Positions 19,335-34,021 of a DNA stretch of 35,247 nucleotides are shown one piece after another (the first letter of the stretch is position 1; the number at the start of each line of letters is the position of its first letter). The stretch covers positions 1 to 35,247 of the forward strand of contig NZ_CAKJTL010000024.1 in assembly GCF_917627385.1 (NCBI RefSeq), in the 5' to 3' direction. A program made the position numbers and the translations under genes. This DNA comes from Protofrankia sp. CiT1. Its GTDB lineage: Bacteria > Actinomycetota > Actinomycetes > Frankiales > Frankiaceae. The notes under the pieces are model-generated. The model saw nothing but the letters and a program-made list of their open reading frames with translations. It had not been told where the DNA came from and did no database searches.

Positions 19335-19577
19335 TTATACCGGCATGTGGACCGTGTCGCGCCGGAGCTCGCGCCGTTCATCCGCGCTGAGCCCGCCCCA
19401 GACGCCGCTGTCCTGACGGGCTTCAAGAGCCCACGCCAGGCATTCGCTGGTGACTGCGCATCGCCGGCATACGGCTTTCGCGGTATCGATCTGGCTCGCG
19501 GCCAGTCCGGTCGTTCCGGTCGGAAAGAAGATCTCGGGATCCGTGCCCCGACAGAAGGCTCGGCGGCGCCAGTCCAT
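19335..19577 (-). CDS. WhiB-family iron-sulfur regulator (WblE/WhiB1-like)
   Basis: The 80-residue protein has the four conserved cysteines that hold a [4Fe-4S] cluster (Cys9, Cys37, Cys40, Cys46, the last three in CRRCAVTSEC) and the turn GVWGG at 58-62, followed by a basic tail (DERRELRRD). WhiB proteins bind the principal sigma factor and tune transcription in response to NO or redox state. The opening MDWRRRAFCRGTDPEIFFP and overall length match the WblE/WhiB1 subgroup, which is essential or near-essential in relatives. ATG 19577 has GGGGGT upstream; longer frames to 19685 would include non-coding sequence. A good -35/-10 promoter is at 19653-19682. Confidence 0.93.
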   Translation of the reverse strand: MDWRRRAFCRGTDPEIFFPTGTTGLAASQIDTAKAVCRRCAVTSECLAWALEARQDSGVWGGLSADERRELRRDTVHMPV

Positions 19578-19652
19578 TTTCGTACCCCCTTTTGCCAGGG
19601 CGTCAGCCCGGATGATGGTTGGCCCGGATGATGCTAGGCGCGGAGGCCCGCT

Positions 19653-19682
19653 TATTAAGCACAACATGCTCTCAATTGTCAA
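19653..19682 (-). promoter_or_regulatory. Sigma-70-type promoter of the whiB-like gene
   Basis: On the minus strand TTGACA (complement at 19677-19682) is followed after 18 bases by TTAATA (complement at 19653-19658). This leaves a 5' leader of about 70 bases before ATG 19577. The match to TTGACA is exact and stands in an AT-rich island, so it should be recognised by the housekeeping sigma factor. Confidence 0.6.
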
Positions 19683-19960
19683 CAACAGAGCAGGGGTGCT
19701 CTGGTGGTGGGCTCGGCCGGCGTCTCCAGCGGCGTTTCTCGGGCAGCCGCCTGCTGCATCGCCGATCCCTGCGCACGTACCGGTTGAAGGTCCTCGCGGA
19801 CCAGGCCACCTTCCGGCCGGCGTTCGCCCGTGGCAAGGAACTGTCCATGCGGGATGTCTACGTCCCGCTGCGGGTCTCAGCGCCCTCAGCGGTCTCGGTC
19901 GGGGGATGGAGCCACGTAGCCGTGGCGGCCACGCGATAGCGACGACGACTCGGCACGAGT

Positions 19961-19977
19961 GGTGCCATCATGGCACC
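19961..19977. promoter_or_regulatory. Palindromic operator next to the VapB start
   Basis: GGTGCCAT-C-ATGGCACC is a perfect 8-bp palindrome around one base and ends directly at the base before ATG 19978. Ribbon-helix-helix antitoxins of VapBC pairs repress their own promoter by binding such palindromes. Its position implies either a leaderless transcript or use of the internal ATG 19987. Confidence 0.6.
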
Positions 19978-20208
19978 ATGAGGCGGATGAACCTGCGTGA
20001 CGTACCCGACGAGATCTACACGGCTCTCGCCGACGCAGCGGCGGCAAGCCACCAGTCGCTGAACGCCTTCGTGGTGGAACGGCTCACCGAGGTGGCCCGT
20101 GTGGTCAGGCTGGCCGACTACGTCGCGTCGTACGAACCCCCCCAGGGAACGGGCGTCACCCTTGAGGACGCCGTGGCCGCGGTGCGCGAGGCCCGGGACG
20201 GCTCGTGA
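19978..20208 (+). CDS. VapB/FitA-type ribbon-helix-helix antitoxin
   Basis: The 76-residue protein starts MRRMNLRDVPDEIYTALADA and continues AAASHQSLNAFVVERLTEVA: a beta strand (MNLRDVP) and two helices, the typical RHH fold of FitA/VapB antitoxins. The C-terminus (GVTLEDAVAAVREARDGS) should wrap the toxin. ATG 19978 abuts the palindrome; ATG 19987, preceded by GAGG, is an alternative start that would leave strand residues intact. The stop overlaps the GTG of the VapC gene (GTGA at 20205-20208), so the two are translated as a unit. Confidence 0.82.
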   Translation: MRRMNLRDVPDEIYTALADAAAASHQSLNAFVVERLTEVARVVRLADYVASYEPPQGTGVTLEDAVAAVREARDGS

Positions 20209-20609
20209 GCCTGGTAGTGATCGACGCGTCGGCTCTGGTCGCCTTCTACGCGGTTTCAGATCCCCGGCGTCCGCGTATCGTCGCGCGTTTTTCCGCCGGT
20301 CATGCGCTTTTCGCGCCAGCGCACCTGGACGTGGAGGTGACGTCCGCACTGCGTGGCCTGGCTCGCGGTAATCCGAGCCTACAGGCGGTGGTCCCCCGGG
20401 CGTTACGCCACTTGGCGGGTTTTCCCATCCGCCGCATGCCGATCGCTCCGCTGCTCGAACGGATGTGGCAGCTCCGCGAGAACGTCACCCCCTACGACGC
20501 TGCTTACGTCGCGCTCGCCGAAAGGCTCGACAGCGCGGTCATCACCTGTGACGCCAAACTGGCGGCGGCTTCCGGAATCGGCTGTATCATCGATCTGATC
20601 GCGTATTGA
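20205..20609 (+). CDS. VapC-type PIN-domain ribonuclease toxin
   Basis: The 134-residue product is a PIN nuclease with all four acidic residues: Asp7 (VVIDASAL), Glu44 (HLDVEVTSAL), Asp98 (VTPYDAAYVALAE) and Asp116 (AVITCDAKLA). VapC toxins cut tRNA or rRNA when freed from VapB. It is intact and paired with the antitoxin by start/stop overlap, so the module should be functional. It interrupts the catabolic region between the WhiB gene and the CoA lyases. The pair's G/C-rich codon use does not suggest a recent arrival. Confidence 0.9.
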   Translation: MSLVVIDASALVAFYAVSDPRRPRIVARFSAGHALFAPAHLDVEVTSALRGLARGNPSLQAVVPRALRHLAGFPIRRMPIAPLLERMWQLRENVTPYDAAYVALAERLDSAVITCDAKLAAASGIGCIIDLIAY

Positions 20610-24755: not shown

Positions 24756-26528
24756 TCAACGCAGCCGAAAAATCTGTAGGCCGTGGTCGGCCAGCAGCTC
24801 CGGCAGATGGCGGACGGCCGCGGTGGCCTTGACACGCTGATCGGGCGACAGGTCGCTCCAGTCACGTAGCAGGTCATGGCGTTTGTGGAGGTCGTCGCGA
24901 ACCGGACCGAAGGTCCATCCCCTGCCGCGGCGCTCAACGCACCAGCGCTCATGCTCGAGCCGGGCGAGCATGTCTATCTCGGCGGCGCTGAAGGTGAACC
25001 CGGTCGTCGGATGGGTCATCGGGACGACGACCGCGTTGATCTCGTTCAGTTTGGCGCCGATTCCCTCGGCCTGTCTGCGGTTTGCCGTCTGCAGGTCCGC
25101 GGGCAAGGCCTCCCAGGGCTGCATCGAGTCCCTGTCGCCGAGGGCGCCGCCGGCTGCCTGTTCGTCGATCAGGTACTGGCCGTGAATGGCACGTGCCAGG
25201 ACCGTCAGCGTGTCGTTGTGCAGCTCGGCCGGTTTCGCCGCTTCGTTCATGATTGCGAATATCCGTACTTCACCTGGCCCGGGATCGAGCAGCTGGCGAT
25301 TGAACAGGTCGCCGAGGGCTGTCCGCTGTTGCATACAGACCGTCACGGTCTGGCCGGTACTTGCGGTACCACGAATCGCGTTCAGGCCGCCTCGCAGCGC
25401 AATGTCCTCATCCTGGTCACAGAGAACCAGGTGGCGAATATCTGGTATGCGGATTTCCCACGGAATCGTCATGAGATCCACGCGCTGCGCCGGCTCGTTC
25501 TTCGTCCGGGGCGCACAGTGCGTGTCGACGGACCGGTAGCGATGCCGCAGTTCAGTGAGCTGGGCGGAGGCATCCGTGTCGACGAGAACAAGCGGCAGCG
25601 GCGGAGCGCCGACACGGACCCGCCACAGCCTGGCCAGCTCCACGATGAGCGCACGCCCGAACGGGCCCAGGCCGACGACCGCGACCGACGGCACCGGATC
25701 GTCGGAACCGAGATGGGGCTCCAGGATGTGAGCGGCGAGCGAGCGCGCGGCGATCTCTTCGGGCGTGAAGAAATCCAGCCGGAACCTCGATGCTGATAAC
25801 AGCCCAAGCCGGCGTGCCTTCAGCGCGAGCGCCAGCTCGCCGTCGGCCAGCCGTGCGTAGCAGGCGAGGGGCTCGTCACGCTCGGTTTGCTGCTCGGCGA
25901 GCGCGGCAACGGCTGCCACCGCGGCCGCGTTGGCGGCGCTGTCAGGCAGGCAGGCGTACACGGTGTCGGCTCGGGGCACACCGGCGGCACGCAGCACCGC
26001 TTGGTCCCAGGGGTCGCCCATGACGACGAGTGACGCGACCGCGGCGAGCCCTTCGGCGCCGTCGGGATCCGCGTCGGCGCTGATGACGACCACCTGGACA
26101 CCTTCGGCCCGGAGGTGGCGGATGAGCGTCATCGCGAACGGATCATCGCCGATGACGACCGCGTGCTCGCGCGCTCGACGGGCCGTCCAGCGGCGACGCC
26201 GGTCGGTGAACAGGTCCCACACGGACACGGCCACGCCGTAGGCGGTCGCGAGTGGCGCCAGGAAACGGGCGACCTCCAGCGGCAGCGGGAAGGGGCCGCC
26301 GTCCTGCAGGGGCTCGGCGCCCAGGAGGAACAGCTGCGCGTCGAAGTAGATGATATCTGTGGTGGTGTATCCGCACGGCTGTGCATGCGGCGGTGGACAC
26401 TGGTCGGCGGCTCGGCTCAGCTGCGCCAGGCCCCACGCACCCAGGATCGCGGCCGCCGTGAACAGCACGCAGAAAGCCAGCCATAGGACGCGGCTGGCTT
26501 TCATCCGTTCTGTCCGCGCCGTCCCCAT
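24756..26528 (-). CDS. Two-helix membrane protein with RCK/TrkA-N-like Rossmann domains and a C-terminal RyR domain
   Basis: The 590-residue protein (ATG 26528; MKASR at 26504 is an alternative start) begins with a helix at ~14-36 (VLWLAFCVLFTAAAILGAWG), a loop with QLFLLGAEPLQDGGPFPLPL, and a second helix at ~84-107. This resembles a two-helix channel with a degenerate pore loop. A Rossmann domain follows (HAVVIGDDPFAMTLIRHLR, ~121-240), as in potassium-channel RCK units, then a second one from ~281 (SVAVVGLGPFGRALIVELAR). The C-terminus (~517-590) reads LARLEHERWCVERRGRGWTF and later HKRHDLLRDWSDL and LPELL, the RyR homology domain known from ryanodine receptors and present in bacteria. It may be a ligand-gated ion channel or nucleotide-sensing effector. 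The genes for the 40- and 158-residue proteins follow on the same strand. Confidence 0.75.
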   Translation of the reverse strand: MGTARTERMKASRVLWLAFCVLFTAAAILGAWGLAQLSRAADQCPPPHAQPCGYTTTDIIYFDAQLFLLGAEPLQDGGPFPLPLEVARFLAPLATAYGVAVSVWDLFTDRRRRWTARRAREHAVVIGDDPFAMTLIRHLRAEGVQVVVISADADPDGAEGLAAVASLVVMGDPWDQAVLRAAGVPRADTVYACLPDSAANAAAVAAVAALAEQQTERDEPLACYARLADGELALALKARRLGLLSASRFRLDFFTPEEIAARSLAAHILEPHLGSDDPVPSVAVVGLGPFGRALIVELARLWRVRVGAPPLPLVLVDTDASAQLTELRHRYRSVDTHCAPRTKNEPAQRVDLMTIPWEIRIPDIRHLVLCDQDEDIALRGGLNAIRGTASTGQTVTVCMQQRTALGDLFNRQLLDPGPGEVRIFAIMNEAAKPAELHNDTLTVLARAIHGQYLIDEQAAGGALGDRDSMQPWEALPADLQTANRRQAEGIGAKLNEINAVVVPMTHPTTGFTFSAAEIDMLARLEHERWCVERRGRGWTFGPVRDDLHKRHDLLRDWSDLSPDQRVKATAAVRHLPELLADHGLQIFRLR

Positions 26529-26949
26529 AGCGACACCGTAGCGACACGGGCCGCATCCGTCGTCAGGGCGTGTTGCGAAAGCCGTCTGTCCGGCTCGCCA
26601 CGTCCAGGCGGCCTTGGCCACGTTCTCGGCCACACCGATAGCACGCATCCGGTATCGGTGCGGCCCGCGGCCTTGCCAGGAACCGCCTGAACGCGGCTCC
26701 CTGATCGAACGACGACTTCCGAAACACGCCGTTCGGCAACGTCGCGACGCTCGGTATCTGACGCGGAACCAGTTGACCAGCGCCGACTCCGACTCGCTGC
26801 CGTGGAAGGTCTCGCCCCCCTGTGGGCTTCCAGTGGTCCGCGATGAGCATGTGGAACCTGGGTGGCTGGTTGAGCTCAGCGGGAAACACGAACGCGTGAT
26901 TCCCGCGATGCCAGAAGCACCCCGACAGGATCAACCAGACTCACGGTCC

Positions 26950-28023: not shown

Positions 28024-28791
28024 TCAGTCCTGGCCGTCGAAGAGCTGGGCGGCGGCTTTAGGGTCCATGAGGTTGGACCAGGCCTGTTCGGCGGGCAGGA
28101 GGTGGCGTTCGGGGAGGGCGTACTCGGGGAACCAGCCGTCGGCTGCGCATCCCGGGACGCGGGAGAGGATCACGGCCGTCAGCCCGGTCGGGACCGAGCC
28201 GGTGATCCGGACCGCGACGTAGGTCTCGTGGCCGTGGTCGGCACGGACGAGTAGGCCGAGGCGGAAGCCAGGGAGGTCGACCGCGTGCTCGTGGCCGTCG
28301 CGCAGCGAGCCACGAACGAGGTCGCGGACGGCGGTGTCGAGACGTTTCGCGAGCCTGGTCCCAGCTTCCAGGAGGTAGCGGTCCTGGTCGTCCTGCCCCG
28401 GGAGCAGATGCCGGCTGTAGGCGTCGGTGGTCAGCGGCTTGTCCTGCTCGGCGTTGTAGCGCTGCCGGGCGGCGCGGGCCTGGGTGTGCAGGGCTGCGTA
28501 GAAGTCGTCGGCGGCACCGTCCTCGCGTCGGCCGGCGGCGACGAGCCAGTCGCGAGCCTCGTCCGCAGCCTGGTCGACGTAGGTCGCACCACGCCATCGG
28601 CCTATCTTGACTTTGAACAGGACCACGTCGTCGATGCTGCGGATCCGCTCGTGCGGGGTGTCCGGGTCGGCGAACTGCTCGCCGGCTTTGGCCAGCAGCG
28701 GGTGGTCGACCTGGTCAAGGGAAGTGCTGGCCGGCGGGAGCGGCAGGTGCAGGTCCTCACGCAGGCAGCGCAGGGTCGGGCGGACCGGCAT
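28024..28791 (-). CDS. Unrecognised 255-residue protein, second gene of a putative toxin-antitoxin pair
   Basis: I do not recognise a family. Features: IRSIDDVVLFKVKIGRWRGA near residues 50-69, helical Ala/Arg-rich stretches (DEARDWLVAAG, ALHTQARAARQRYNAEQDK), KRLDTAVRDLVRGSLRDG, then a strand-rich end (FRLGLLVRADHGHETYVAVR, LTAVILSRVPG). No signal peptide or membrane helix is seen. ATG 28791 lies three bases after the stop of the ribbon-helix-helix gene (TGACCTATG), so they form a tight operon. In this layout the small DNA-binding protein would be the antitoxin and this protein the toxin, but no catalytic motif supports a toxic activity. It could equally be a partner of the RHH protein in plasmid or phage biology. 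Confidence 0.65.
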   Translation of the reverse strand: MPVRPTLRCLREDLHLPLPPASTSLDQVDHPLLAKAGEQFADPDTPHERIRSIDDVVLFKVKIGRWRGATYVDQAADEARDWLVAAGRREDGAADDFYAALHTQARAARQRYNAEQDKPLTTDAYSRHLLPGQDDQDRYLLEAGTRLAKRLDTAVRDLVRGSLRDGHEHAVDLPGFRLGLLVRADHGHETYVAVRITGSVPTGLTAVILSRVPGCAADGWFPEYALPERHLLPAEQAWSNLMDPKAAAQLFDGQD

Positions 28792-28794
28792 AGG

Positions 28795-29076
28795 TCACGC
28801 TTCCCAGTCGCCTACGCCGCCGAGCTGTTCGATCCGATCCGCCGACAGCCCGGTCAGCGCGGCCACGCTCGCGGACAGGGAGCCGTCGAGAACCTTCATG
28901 GAGGCGACCATGCCTCGGCGGATCTCTTCCCGGCGCTGGTCGAGGTAGGTCTTGACCGCCTCGGCGACGAAGTCCTTCTTCGACATGCCGAGGAAGTGCG
29001 CGGCCTGGGAGATCAGCTCGTCCGTGGCCGGGTCGACTTTCAGGGGGGCCTGGCGACGGGGTCCGACGGTTGTCAT
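28795..29076 (-). CDS. Ribbon-helix-helix-like DNA-binding protein, possible antitoxin (93 aa)
   Basis: The protein reads TTVGPRRQAPLKVDPATDEL, ISQAAHFLGMSKKDFVAEAV, KTYLDQRREEIRRGM. A beta strand (APLKVDP) and two helices with GMSKKDFVAEAV match the RHH fold of antitoxins and regulators. The C-terminus (SLSASVAALTGLSADRIEQL) is predicted helical and may bind the partner. ATG 29076 has AGAGG at a proper distance; a GTG at 29085 is too close to it. The gene is first in a two-gene operon with the 255-residue protein. Its promoter lies in the 73 bases before the neighbouring transposase remnant. Confidence 0.72.
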   Translation of the reverse strand: MTTVGPRRQAPLKVDPATDELISQAAHFLGMSKKDFVAEAVKTYLDQRREEIRRGMVASMKVLDGSLSASVAALTGLSADRIEQLGGVGDWEA

Positions 29077-29149
29077 GGCGCTCACCTCTTGCAGCCATGG
29101 TACCCAAGTACCTCAGCCTGACACTGTGGGTGCCCAAAATCGTGTCTGG

Positions 29150-29656
29150 TCAGGCTGCCTGGTATTCGTGGATCAAGCCTCCGAGTCGGTCACCTCGGAT
29201 CACGGTCACGGTGGGCTTGTGCGGTGCTCCAGCCGCCAGCGGCGGCCGTTGTTGGAGGGCTCGGTGCGGACGGTGGATGTTGTAGTGATCGACGTAGTCG
29301 GTCACTACAGCGGTGAGATGCCGCTGGCCGAGGATGAGCAGGTGGTCGAGGCATTCGCGGCGTACGGTGCTGATCCATCGTTCGGCGTAGGCGTTCGCGA
29401 CTGGAGCTTGTACCGGGGTGCGGACGATCGTGAGGTCGTCGGCCGTGAATACGGCGTCGACTGCTGCGGTGAACTTGTTGTCCCGGTCGCGGATCAGCCA
29501 GCGGAAAGATGAGGCCCCTCCTCGTTCAGCGTCATAAGGAGATTCCGCGCTTGCTGGGTAACCCAGGCGCCGGTCGGATGGCGAGTCACGCCCGCGAGAT
29601 GGACCCGGCGGTGGTCGAGCTCGACGAAGAACAGGACATACAGCCGGGTCAGGAAG
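29150..29656 (-). pseudogene. Integrase-core (rve-type) transposase remnant, frameshifted
   Basis: On the minus strand the DDE core reads [36 protein letters not shown], then after a frameshift near 29512-29520 continues [69 protein letters not shown] and stops at 29150-29152. These are the DDE strands and the HRPHRAL ending common to such integrase-type transposases. The 5' half, with the first catalytic Asp and the HTH, is missing: the IS3 remnant begins where it stops. It is therefore dead. The outer end may be near 29126 (TGTGGGTGCCC), but no inverted repeat partner remains. Confidence 0.8.
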
Positions 29657-31431
<1,775 letters not shown>

Positions 31432-32153: not shown

Positions 32154-32561
32154 TCAGCGAAAGACGAAACGGTCGGCGCCGTAGGGGTCGTCAACATTAA
32201 CGATCTTTCGCCCCAGTGGCAGTAGCGAGACCGGGATCAGCTTGAAGTTCGCGATCCCCAGCGGGATACCAATGATCGTGAGGCACAGCAGCAGGCCGGT
32301 CGCCAGGTGGCCGAGCGCCAGCCACCAGCCTGCGAACACGATCCACAGCACGTTTCCGATCAGTGACGGCGCTCCCGCATCGCGGCGATCGACCACTCGG
32401 CGGCCGAACGGCCACAGTGTGAAGTTGGCGATGCGCAGCGAGGCAACCCCGAACGGAATGGTGAAAATCAGAATGAAGCAGATCAGTGCGGCGAGGATGT
32501 AGCCCAGCGCCATCCAGAACCCACACAACACGAGCCAGATCAGGTTCAGTATCACACGCAT
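32154..32561 (-). CDS. YccF-domain inner-membrane protein
   Basis: The 135-residue protein consists of two related halves, each with a hydrophobic helix pair: ILNLIWLVLCGFWMALGYIL then CFILIFTIPFGVASLRIANF, TLWPFGRRVV, and again IGNVLWIVFAGWWLALGHLA, LCLTIIGIPLGIANFKL and LLPLGRKIV. The repeated N.iW.v..G...ALG and IPfG.a..r…lwPFGr motifs define the YccF family (bacterial membrane protein of unknown function). ATG 32561 has GGAAGG upstream. It is a stand-alone gene with housekeeping-like codon use, set between mobile remnants. Confidence 0.9.
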   Translation of the reverse strand: MRVILNLIWLVLCGFWMALGYILAALICFILIFTIPFGVASLRIANFTLWPFGRRVVDRRDAGAPSLIGNVLWIVFAGWWLALGHLATGLLLCLTIIGIPLGIANFKLIPVSLLPLGRKIVNVDDPYGADRFVFR

Positions 32562-32682
32562 ACGGTCAACCTTCCCGCAGGAGCCTCGTATGAACAATCC
32601 CACCAGGGGTGCCTCGCTGCGTAGGATGGTCCTGTTGCGAAGAATCCTGCGGGTGACACATGCGATTGCCTGTGATTCGAAA

Positions 32683-32957
32683 TCAGATGTGGTAAGCGTC
32701 CCTGCGGTGGCGGATCGCGGTGACTTCGACGACGCGGTTGGCGTCGTCAACAAGGTAGATGACCCGGTACGGTCCCCGCCGCGCCGACCACAGTGGCGTG
32801 AGCGGCGGTCGAGGGCTCTGCCAACCCGGTGCGGGGGGCCGAGCAGAGGTCCGGTGACGAACTCGTGGGCAGCGGCGGCGACCTTTTCGGGTAGCACCTC
32901 GGCGAGGGCGTGTGCGGCGGCTCGGGCGATCCGCAGCTGGTAACGGCTTTCCGTCAC
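32683..32957 (-). pseudogene. RelE-type toxin gene with a frameshift
   Basis: From GTG 32957 the frame reads TESRYQLRIARAAAHALAEV, LPEKVAAAAHEFVTGPLLGP and PHRVGRA, then a frameshift (near 32820) moves the correct reading to another frame: PLTPLWSARRGPYRVIYLVD followed by DANRVVEVTAIRHRRDAYHI and stop 32683-32685. This is the RelE/ParE fold (…ARRGdYRViY.vdd…v.v..i.hR.dvY). The frameshift removes the basic catalytic strands, so no active toxin is expected unless the reading is corrected. Its start overlaps the antitoxin stop (GTGA). Confidence 0.8.
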
Positions 32958-33088
32958 TGGCTGCGGCCGAAGCGTCGAAGGTAGTCGGTCAGTTCCTCCC
33001 CGTTGAGGACGTCACCGGTGTGGAGGTGGGCGAGCCCTTCCTGGATGGCCTGCATGAGTTCGCTGTCGGCGAGGGGGAGCATTGTCAT
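32954..33088 (-). pseudogene. C-terminal part of a Phd/RelB-type antitoxin, N-terminus lost
   Basis: The frame reads MTMLPLADSELMQAIQEGLA, HLHTGDVLNGEELTDYLRRF and GRSQ (44 residues), ending at 32954-32956. Full antitoxins of this kind have ~80-90 residues: a DNA-binding N-terminal half, then '…lsDpeam.el.eg.a.ldaGdvvdgeeL', which matches this fragment. The N-terminal half is replaced by the IS256-type sequence that begins at 33087 on the other strand. Thus the operator-binding domain is gone while the toxin-binding tail remains. The available ATG 33088 could still drive a short product. Confidence 0.65.
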
Positions 33089-33718
33089 GTACAGAATTGC
33101 GGAGACGATCGCGGGCGAACCGGCAGCCGCCGGCGCTCAGGGCGCTGCTGCGGTGCTCGACGAGGAACTCGCGCGGCGCCTGGTCGTGCAGGCGAAGGCC
33201 GACGGCGTGTCGCTGAGCGGGCCGGGCGGGATGCTCGGGAAACTGACGAAGATGGCCCTCGAGACCACGCTCGAGGCCGAGAGGACGGCGCATCTCGGCT
33301 ACGAGGCCCACGACCCGGCCGGGCGTGACGGTGGGGATTCCCGTAACGGCACCCGGACGAAGACCGTGGTCACCGAGATCGGACTGCTCCAGGTCGACGT
33401 GCCGCGCGACCGGGACGCCAGCGTCGCCCCGAGGATCGTTGCGAAGCGGCAACGGCGCTTGGACGGGGTCGCCGACCTCGTGGTCTCCCTGGTCGCGAAG
33501 GGACTGACGGCCGGCGAGGTCCAGGCGCATCTCGCCGAGATCTACGGCACCGACCTCTCCCGGTAGACGATCTCGAACATCACCGACAAGGCGATCGAGG
33601 GTATAGAGGCCTGGGACGCCCGACCTTTGGACGCCGTCTACGCGGTCGTGTTCATCGACGCGATCGTCGTGAAGATCCGCGATGGGCAGGTCGCGATCCC
33701 CCGGCCGAACGGGGCAGG
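33087..33718 (+). pseudogene. IS256-family transposase, nonsense-mutated and truncated
   Basis: From ATG 33087 the frame reads VLDEELARRLVVQAKADGVS, LSGPGGMLGKLTKMALETTL, EAERTAHLGYEAHDPAGRD, NGTRTKTVVTEIGLLQVDVP, DRDASVAPRIVAKRQRRLDG, the usual IS256 N-terminal half. An in-frame TAG at 33564-33566 stands where relatives have Glu (SR-E-TIS.ITD); after it the sequence continues TISNITDKAIEGIEAWDARP and VYAVVFIDAIVVKIRDGQVA with the first catalytic Asp. At about 33718 it stops and IS66 sequence begins. It is dead twice over. Confidence 0.85.
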
Positions 33719-34021
33719 AAACAGCCGGTCGGCCGCTGCCTGCTCGAGTGCCTGCGCGACCGGCAGGACGACGTGCTCCGCTTCGTCGTCGATCTTGACG
33801 TGTGGCCGACGAACAACCAGTCGAAGCGTGATCTTCGGCCGTTCAAGACCCAGCAGAAGATCAGCGGACGGCCCACCTCCCAGGCCGCGACCGCCTGCCG
33901 CCTCCAGATCGCGAGTTACGTCTCCACCGCCCGCAAGCACGGTGTGTCCGCGATGCACGCCCTCCGGCTCGCGTTCCGCGGCACTCCCTGGATGCCACCG
34001 GCCGCCGTCGTCCCCACCTGA
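33719..34021 (+). pseudogene. C-terminal fragment of an IS66-family transposase
   Basis: The frame reads KQPVGRCLLECLRDRQDDVL, RFVVDLDVWPTNNQSKRDLR, PFKTQQKISGRPTSQAATA, RLQIASYVSTARKHGVSAMH and ALRLAFRGTPWMPP, ending at TGA 34019-34021. TNNQ..rDLRp.K..QKISG and SY.sTARKHG…al..a..G.PW.P are the C-terminal signatures of IS66 TnpC. Its N-terminal and central parts are absent, replaced by IS256 sequence, so two elements were joined here by deletion or recombination. Confidence 0.85.

What the first reader, a model, noticed from the sequence alone, without database searches (positions are those of the whole stretch)
28024..29076. RHH protein plus unrecognised 255-residue partner: possible new toxin-antitoxin type
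A 93-residue ribbon-helix-helix protein is followed three bases later by a 255-residue protein with no motif I recognise. The layout is that of a type II toxin-antitoxin pair, and the surrounding DNA is a zone of dead toxin genes and insertion sequences. The second protein is larger than usual toxins.
Basis: partly seen in the sequence, partly recalled or inferred. Interest (0 to 1): 0.52.

Follow-up and report, generated by a model that had tools for sequence, protein, structure and literature searches.

The report
Likely toxin-antitoxin pair, unnamed toxin family
Two neighbouring bacterial genes look like a small DNA-binding antidote and a larger, unrecognised poison protein that travel together; the poison family has no name in the libraries searched and its toxicity has not been tested in the lab.

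Summary
On the minus strand, a 93-residue ribbon-helix-helix (RHH) protein (28795-29076) is followed after 3 bases by an intact 255-residue protein (28024-28791). The genome appears to be of the Frankia family. The pair is conserved: all 17 intact relatives of the large protein that I inspected have a small gene, DNA-binding in 16, directly upstream. Both genes are under purifying selection. In 35 family genomes, 15 RHH copies are full length but only 4 keep an intact partner, and no intact partner lacks its RHH. A palindromic box, GGTACYTNGGTACY, lies upstream of the RHH gene (exact in 19 of 30 upstream regions). Distant relatives of the large protein, some on Rhodococcus plasmids, carry a different DNA-binding gene (excisionase-like HTH) and lack this box; that HTH family precedes PIN-toxin genes in 5 of 5 unrelated plasmids opened. 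The large protein therefore sits in a toxin slot. No Pfam, NCBIfam, PADLOC, PHROG or PDB assignment was found. A RelE-like N-terminal domain is my preferred guess but is statistically unsupported. Verdict: very likely a type II toxin-antitoxin module with an unnamed, probably two-domain toxin family; a new family, not a new TA "type". Toxicity is untested.

The parts
28795..29076 (-). 93-residue RHH protein, proposed antitoxin and autorepressor
   Evidence: ORF; PF07704 E 4.2e-5 below cut-off; 9 of 10 family members match PF07704; present upstream of all intact clade I partners examined
28024..28791 (-). 255-residue partner, proposed toxin; N-terminal part about residues 1-120, C-terminal part about residues 130-252
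   Evidence: ORF; intact relatives at 57-83% identity; no library match; residues about 140-250 modelled with pLDDT mostly near 80, N-terminal part not
29099..29112 (-). palindromic box GGTACTTGGGTACC, proposed operator of the pair, 22 bp upstream of the RHH start
   Evidence: only match in the window with up to 1 mismatch; 2 exact matches to a slightly looser pattern in 5.0 Mb; same box exactly in 19 of 30 upstream regions; absent upstream of HTH-type relatives
29081..29089 (-). AGAGGTGAG, ribosome-binding-site-like sequence before the RHH ATG
   Evidence: read from the sequence; no test made

Best explanation
This is a two-gene type II toxin-antitoxin module. The upstream RHH protein dimerises, binds the GGTAC-NNNN-GTACC box in front of the operon and represses it, and its C-terminal tail (the conserved GG segment) holds the downstream 255-residue protein inactive; free partner would be toxic. 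Shown here: conserved pairing, purifying selection on both genes, a conserved box that goes with the RHH gene, decay of the partner while the RHH gene survives, and replacement of RHH and box by an HTH gene and another repeat in distant relatives whose HTH family also precedes PIN toxins. Inferred: DNA binding, neutralisation, toxicity. Most likely mode of the toxin (inferred, weak, about 0.3): attack on RNA or translation by a RelE-like N-terminal domain (K60, K62, R67, R89, Y98 in the place of the RelE active-site residues), with the C-terminal domain giving target choice or antitoxin binding.
For: Pairing: RHH directly upstream with a 2-15 bp gap in nine of the ten clade I relatives first aligned. 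17 of 17 intact relatives inspected have a small upstream gene on the same strand: RHH in 13, excisionase-like HTH in 3, and one 87-residue ORF that is RHH-like only by eye. Decay in 35 family genomes: 15 full-length RHH, 4 with intact partner, 11 with broken or missing partner, 0 intact partners without full-length RHH. By gene length alone the partner would be the broken one 11 times in 11 with p about 0.03. Selection: dN/dS RHH/partner 0.08/0.17 and 0.06/0.11 in the two pairs of loci compared where both copies are intact. Co-inheritance: distances of RHH and partner correlate, r 0.89, 0 of 20,000 permutations. Operator: 19 of 30 exact, 22 of 30 within 1 mismatch, 0 of 6,000 shuffles exact, including clade II, whose partners are 33% identical; 0 of 7 for HTH-type and L040 loci. 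Toxin slot: clade III relatives on 5 Rhodococcus/Prescottella plasmid records, HTH upstream in the 2 opened; that HTH family lies in front of PIN-domain genes in 5 of 5 other plasmids opened. A MerR-like HTH antitoxin family of PIN toxins is described in PMC2701414, section 9 (read).
Against: No toxicity data. The RHH matches antitoxin models only below curated cut-offs. The box pattern was derived from the same sequences it was counted in. The decay asymmetry is only modestly significant and the loci are not fully independent. Correlated distances also arise from plain vertical descent. The HTH link rests partly on a common HTH domain (32-50% identity in the rows shown). RelE-likeness: profile comparison gave probability of at most 1.2%, the N-terminal domain model failed (pLDDT 45), and of the five residues only R67 stays invariant and K62 nearly so in the wide alignment. 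In a 2026 mycobacterial screen of predicted pairs only 2 of 14 genes were toxic (PMC13284704, section 21), a warning about such predictions.
Confidence: 0.75

Rival explanations
1. A repressor plus a non-toxic accessory protein: the RHH protein only regulates a neighbouring accessory gene (for example a stress or phage-exclusion protein), and the partner is lost often because it is dispensable.
For: Patchy presence: 6 of 396 genomes in a phylum sample and 28 of 393 in a class sample; frequent partner decay; no match to any toxin model.
Against: Exchange of the upstream gene for an HTH family that precedes PIN toxins in 5 of 5 plasmids opened; no intact partner without the RHH gene in 35 family genomes; no PADLOC match for any of 16 members.
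Confidence: 0.2
2. The partner is a diverged RelE/ParE-superfamily (BECR-fold) RNase toxin with an added C-terminal domain (a narrower version of the best explanation).
For: Residues 57-98 read like RelE strands 2-4 and helix 3; K60, K62, R67, R89 and Y98 are invariant in ten relatives; hhalign by itself puts LFKVKIGRWRGATYVD...WLVAAGRRED on VFRLRVGDYRVIYHVED...VVRVAHRRE; the failed N-domain model still shows helix-helix-strand-strand-strand-helix. RelE Arg61, Arg81 and Tyr87 as active residues: PMC4989188 passages; Lys52/Lys54 are recalled. Multidomain BECR toxins are described in PMC11980606 (abstract and sections 20 and 27 read).
Against: Probability 0.3-1.2% in profile comparisons, while the positive control, Gp49 against ParE, gave 88.7%; column-shuffled control mean score 11.1 against 12.7 observed; no Foldseek or VIA support; R89 and Y98 not kept in all distant relatives.
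Confidence: 0.3
3. A dead relic: the window copy is one more decaying remnant in a transposon-rich zone.
For: Most copies in family genomes are broken; transposase pieces lie right upstream at 29150-29305.
Against: The window copy is full length with no internal stop, aligns end to end with intact relatives and shows dN/dS 0.17 against the nearest intact one; its box and ribosome-binding-like site are intact.
Confidence: 0.07

Closest known systems
VapBC and FitAB (RHH antitoxin with PIN-domain toxin)
   Same: Small RHH gene first, toxin second, short gap; RHH related to PF07704/VapB-type models below cut-off.
   Different: The partner has no detectable PIN domain in any of 10 members and is about twice as long.
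HTH (MerR/excisionase-like) antitoxin with PIN toxin, described in PMC2701414
   Same: The clade III relatives of the window protein carry an upstream HTH of this general kind, and its relatives precede PIN genes in 5 of 5 plasmids opened.
   Different: The clade III toxin-slot protein is the window family with a C-terminal DUF3039, not PIN; the window pair itself has an RHH instead.
RelBE / RelE-ParE superfamily, including multidomain BECR toxins (PMC11980606)
   Same: RHH antitoxin partner; motif-level resemblance in residues 57-98.
   Different: No statistical sequence support and no structural support; much longer.
DUF3039 proteins (PF11238)
   Same: Homologous first about 260 residues in clade III (A1 against G009, E 1.5e-11).
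   Different: The window protein lacks the DUF3039 C-terminal segment, which is called possibly metal-binding in PMC9425974 (passage).

Membership tests
Type II toxin-antitoxin system | two adjacent co-directional genes with a small gene for a DNA-binding protein | tested here: met
Type II toxin-antitoxin system | conserved operator in front of the operon for autoregulation | tested here: inconclusive
   box found in 22 of 30 upstream regions within 1 mismatch, but binding was not shown and the pattern came from the same set
Type II toxin-antitoxin system | antitoxin can outlive the toxin, toxin not found without antitoxin | tested here: met
   11 of 15 full-length RHH without intact partner; 0 intact partners without full-length RHH in 35 genomes
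Type II toxin-antitoxin system | toxin inhibits growth and antitoxin rescues by direct binding | not testable with these tools
   needs expression and complex tests
Type II toxin-antitoxin system | mobile, patchy distribution and partner exchange | tested here: met
   6 of 396 and 28 of 393 genomes; plasmid copies of clade III; HTH in place of RHH
VapBC / FitAB | PIN-domain toxin | tested here: not met
   no PIN model at E up to 5 in any of 10 members; sequence level only
RelE/ParE superfamily | profile similarity to PF05016 or PF05973 | tested here: not met
   hhalign probability 0.3-1.2% with a working positive control of 88.7%
RelE/ParE superfamily | BECR fold | tested here: inconclusive
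   N-terminal model failed (pLDDT 45); searches with it uninformative
RelE/ParE superfamily | active-site basic residues and terminal Tyr | tested here: inconclusive
   K60, K62, R67, R89, Y98 invariant in 10 close relatives, but R89 and Y98 not across all 16
DUF3039 (PF11238) | DUF3039 domain | tested here: not met
   absent from the window protein, present in clade III relatives
Known anti-phage defence system | match to a PADLOC model | tested here: not met
   0 of 16 members at E up to 1

The most novel reading that the evidence does not exclude
The 255-residue protein belongs to an actinobacterial toxin superfamily (about 246-334 residues, an N-terminal module with R-P-T-x-R, then K-x-K-x-x-R-W-R-G-A, then D-D-F-Y, plus a variable C-terminal domain) whose fold and target are not among the known toxin families. 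In it, the antitoxin gene together with its operator is exchanged as a cassette (RHH with GGTACYTNGGTACY; excisionase-like HTH with a TGTCATCTGTGACA repeat).
Probability: 0.35. Interest if true: 0.68.

Novelty: new variant of a known kind. Interest (0 to 1): 0.52.

Why it matters
Type II toxins are mostly about 100 residues and fall into a few folds (established knowledge, recalled). A family of about 250-334 residues with no library assignment, paired with at least two unrelated DNA-binding antitoxins in actinomycetes, would add a toxin family and possibly a new target. It also gives a clean natural case of antitoxin and operator being swapped together around a conserved toxin. Clade III members are annotated on plasmids only as 'DUF3039 domain-containing protein', so the finding would let such genes be re-annotated and tested.

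Tried and rejected
RelE/ParE homology by profile: tried with PF05973 and PF05016 alignments gathered from class genomes, whole and cropped, and with a RelE-proper subset; the register came out as I expected from reading, but with probability of at most 1.2%. At least one of 60 column-shuffled controls gave an outlying score (maximum 132.89), which I did not explain. Structure: the whole protein from 7 sequences gave mean pLDDT 60, with residues 43-100 under 50; the N-terminal domain of a relative (L028) from 8 sequences gave pLDDT 45; Foldseek against PDB and viral models gave no match at E up to 0.001; VIA-align best Z was 5.1, rmsd 3.9, over 73 residues (2qzi) for the C-terminal part, not distinctive, and best Z 2.4 for the N-terminal part. 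PDB sequence searches: 4 weak hits at E 0.24-1.6 for A1 and none for A5; for the RHH alignment 7 hits, the best a 'cap repeat' at E 3.8e-4 over residues outside the RHH core, not pursued. PHROGs: only isolated hits at E 0.01 or worse.

No viral-contig relatives, no phage records and no plasmid records for the window protein, its RHH, clade II or clade IV. PD-(D/E)xK nuclease: considered because clade III reads E-x-K; rejected since clade I reads K-x-K. Literature: 'DUF3039' occurs in 6 papers, none of which appears to be about toxin-antitoxin from the listing or from the passages I saw in three of them; searches combining toxin-antitoxin with Frankia, with excisionase/swapping, novel toxin/Actinobacteria, NetFlax and PIN/partner swapping listed no paper that by title, abstract start or the passages seen describes this family; supplements could not be read. 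So 'not described' rests on these searches only. The genome G635 match (E 3.5e-4) lies inside a 318-residue ORF that looks unrelated and was dropped from the intact count (it is one of the 28 of 393). L003/G000:C3, G008, G029, G022 and other fragments were not counted as intact.

Full report
What is there. The two ORFs are as described, both on the minus strand: RHH 28795-29076 (93 aa) and partner 28024-28791 (255 aa), 3 bp apart. GC by codon position is gene-like for both. The window is contig 24 of a 5.02 Mb genome. The record titles of three related loci say Frankia (L029, L032, L034), and their contig lengths equal those of contigs in three genomes of the window's own family, so I take the window to be of the Frankia family.

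The family. One further full-length copy (60% identical) and one remnant lie in the same genome. Intact relatives occur in other genomes of the family and in Actinocrinis, Acrocarpospora, Actinacidiphila, Hamadaea and Phytohabitans. In a phylum sample, 6 of 396 genomes have a match; in a class sample, 28 of 393 (broken copies and distant clades included). The profile of the close relatives also reaches three more distant groups. Clade II has an 84-residue RHH plus 260-279 aa (L038, L135 intact; L133, L142 broken). Clade III has an excisionase-like HTH of 131-133 residues plus 330-334 aa ending in DUF3039 (L132, L137, L138). Clade IV is L040, an 87-residue ORF plus 246 aa. The links are significant: A1 against G393 (clade II) E 3.8e-33 and against G304 (clade IV) E 8.8e-8; A1 against G009 (clade III) E 1.5e-11; in reverse, clade IV against G000 E 8.7e-6 and clade III against the second G000 copy E 4.2e-7.

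Obligate pairing. Of 17 intact partner genes inspected (11 clade I, 2 clade II, 3 clade III, 1 clade IV), all have a small gene directly upstream on the same strand: RHH in 13, HTH_17 in 3, and one ORF (L040) that reads RHH-like by eye but has no significant Pfam match. Gaps in clade I are 2-15 bp. The exception is the second copy of the window's own genome (L002), where no ATG, GTG or TTG lies near the expected start: the GTG of its relative L007 reads GCG there, so that copy may be untranslated or start at CTG. RHH and partner distances correlate over ten loci (r 0.89, 0 of 20,000 permutations reach it); vertical descent would also do this.

Decay pattern. In the 35 genomes of the family that the search drew (150 were asked for), I counted RHH copies covering at least 85 of 92 profile positions in one open frame: 15. 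Their partner is intact in 4 (window, second copy in G000, G013, G028), and broken or missing in 11 (for two of these, downstream reading). No intact partner lacks a full-length RHH. If breakage simply followed gene length (255:93), eleven of eleven would have p about 0.03, so this is supportive rather than decisive, and some loci share ancestry. Both genes are constrained where intact (dN/dS 0.08 and 0.17; 0.06 and 0.11). RHH genes next to broken partners also show low pairwise values (0.07-0.39), though time before breakage contributes.

Operator-like box. Reading the upstream regions showed a repeated GGTACYTNGGTACY. Counted over 30 upstream regions (some from broken loci), it is exact in 19 and within one mismatch in 22; in 6,000 dinucleotide shuffles it was never exact and within one mismatch in 0.03%. 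The pattern was derived from the same set, but clade II, whose partners are about 33% identical to the window protein, shares it in all four loci examined. The L002-like subgroup has a version one base longer in L002 and L112. The window holds one match (29099-29112) and the whole genome two with a slightly looser pattern, the other inside a coding region. HTH-type loci and L040 lack it (0 of 7, best 5 mismatches), and the four chromosomal HTH loci show a different repeat, around TGTCATCTGTGACA, by eye.

Toxin slot. Clade III proteins lie on 5 Rhodococcus/Prescottella plasmid records, annotated only as DUF3039 domain-containing protein; in the two opened, an HTH gene precedes them. The HTH protein of L137 matches 81 plasmid records. 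I opened five outside the actinobacteria, picked for diversity (Bradyrhizobium, Mameliella, Myroides, Sinorhizobium, Flavobacterium): in 5 of 5 the next gene is a PIN-domain protein (in the Sinorhizobium case about 215 bp away; the Myroides and Flavobacterium stretches look like the same region). PIN proteins are established toxins of such pairs (PMC2701414, section 9 read), and exchange of partners is a known habit of type II systems (PMC10440598, passages). So a homologue of the window protein takes the place of a known toxin class beside the same antitoxin family.

Mechanism. No library names the protein. Across 16 diverse members the invariant residues are R4, T6, R8, L10, R67, W82, G87, D96, F97, L130, P131 and D135, with K62 and E142 nearly so. 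That is a basic set, fitting RNA binding or an RNase, mostly in the N-terminal half, so I place the active site there (inference). The stretch 57-98 resembles RelE strands 2-4 and helix 3 in order and in the placing of K60, K62, R67, R89 and Y98, and hhalign chose the same register by itself, but no comparison was significant while a known pair of RelE-superfamily profiles was. AlphaFold2 with the few sequences allowed modelled residues about 140-250 fairly well and the N-terminal part not at all; fold searches gave nothing distinctive. I therefore keep a RelE-like RNase as the leading but weak guess.

Verdict. Growth tests remain decisive. The caution is real: in a 2026 screen only 2 of 14 genes from seven predicted mycobacterial pairs were toxic (PMC13284704, section 21 read).

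Noticed in passing
window 19450-20609 (+): An apparently intact RHH/PIN pair: a FitA-like RHH segment (PF22513 E 2.3e-4, below cut-off) in the C-terminal part of the 19450-20208 frame and a PIN protein at 20205-20609 (PF01850 E 1e-10).
   Followed up: partly
window 32154-32957 (-): One open frame joins a partial ParE-type match (32692-32844) to a YccF inner-membrane domain (PF03733 E 8e-36); perhaps a read-through of a toxin remnant into another gene, but a membrane-fused ParE would be unusual.
   Followed up: no
window 24756-26648 (-): 630-residue protein with TrkA-N (E 1.3e-13) and a RyR domain (E 1.2e-8), an unusual-looking combination.
   Followed up: no
G000:C87, locus L002 around 1463-1530: Second copy of the pair in the same genome: the partner lacks a usual start codon (GTG of relative L007 reads GCG), so it may be silent although otherwise intact.
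   Followed up: partly
L132, L137, L138, L141 upstream of the HTH gene: A repeat around TGTCATCTGTGACA, nearly twice in L137 and L138, looks like the operator of the HTH-type antitoxin (by eye).
   Followed up: no
L125, L126 downstream of the pair: By reading only: after the partner gene, an Xre-like HTH protein reads on within the frames listed, perhaps part of another TA pair stacked behind this one.
   Followed up: no
window 29150-29305 (-), 29864-30532 (-), 33018-33566 (+), 33773-34021 (+): Transposase pieces of several kinds (rve, Mutator, IS66) around the pair.
   Followed up: partly
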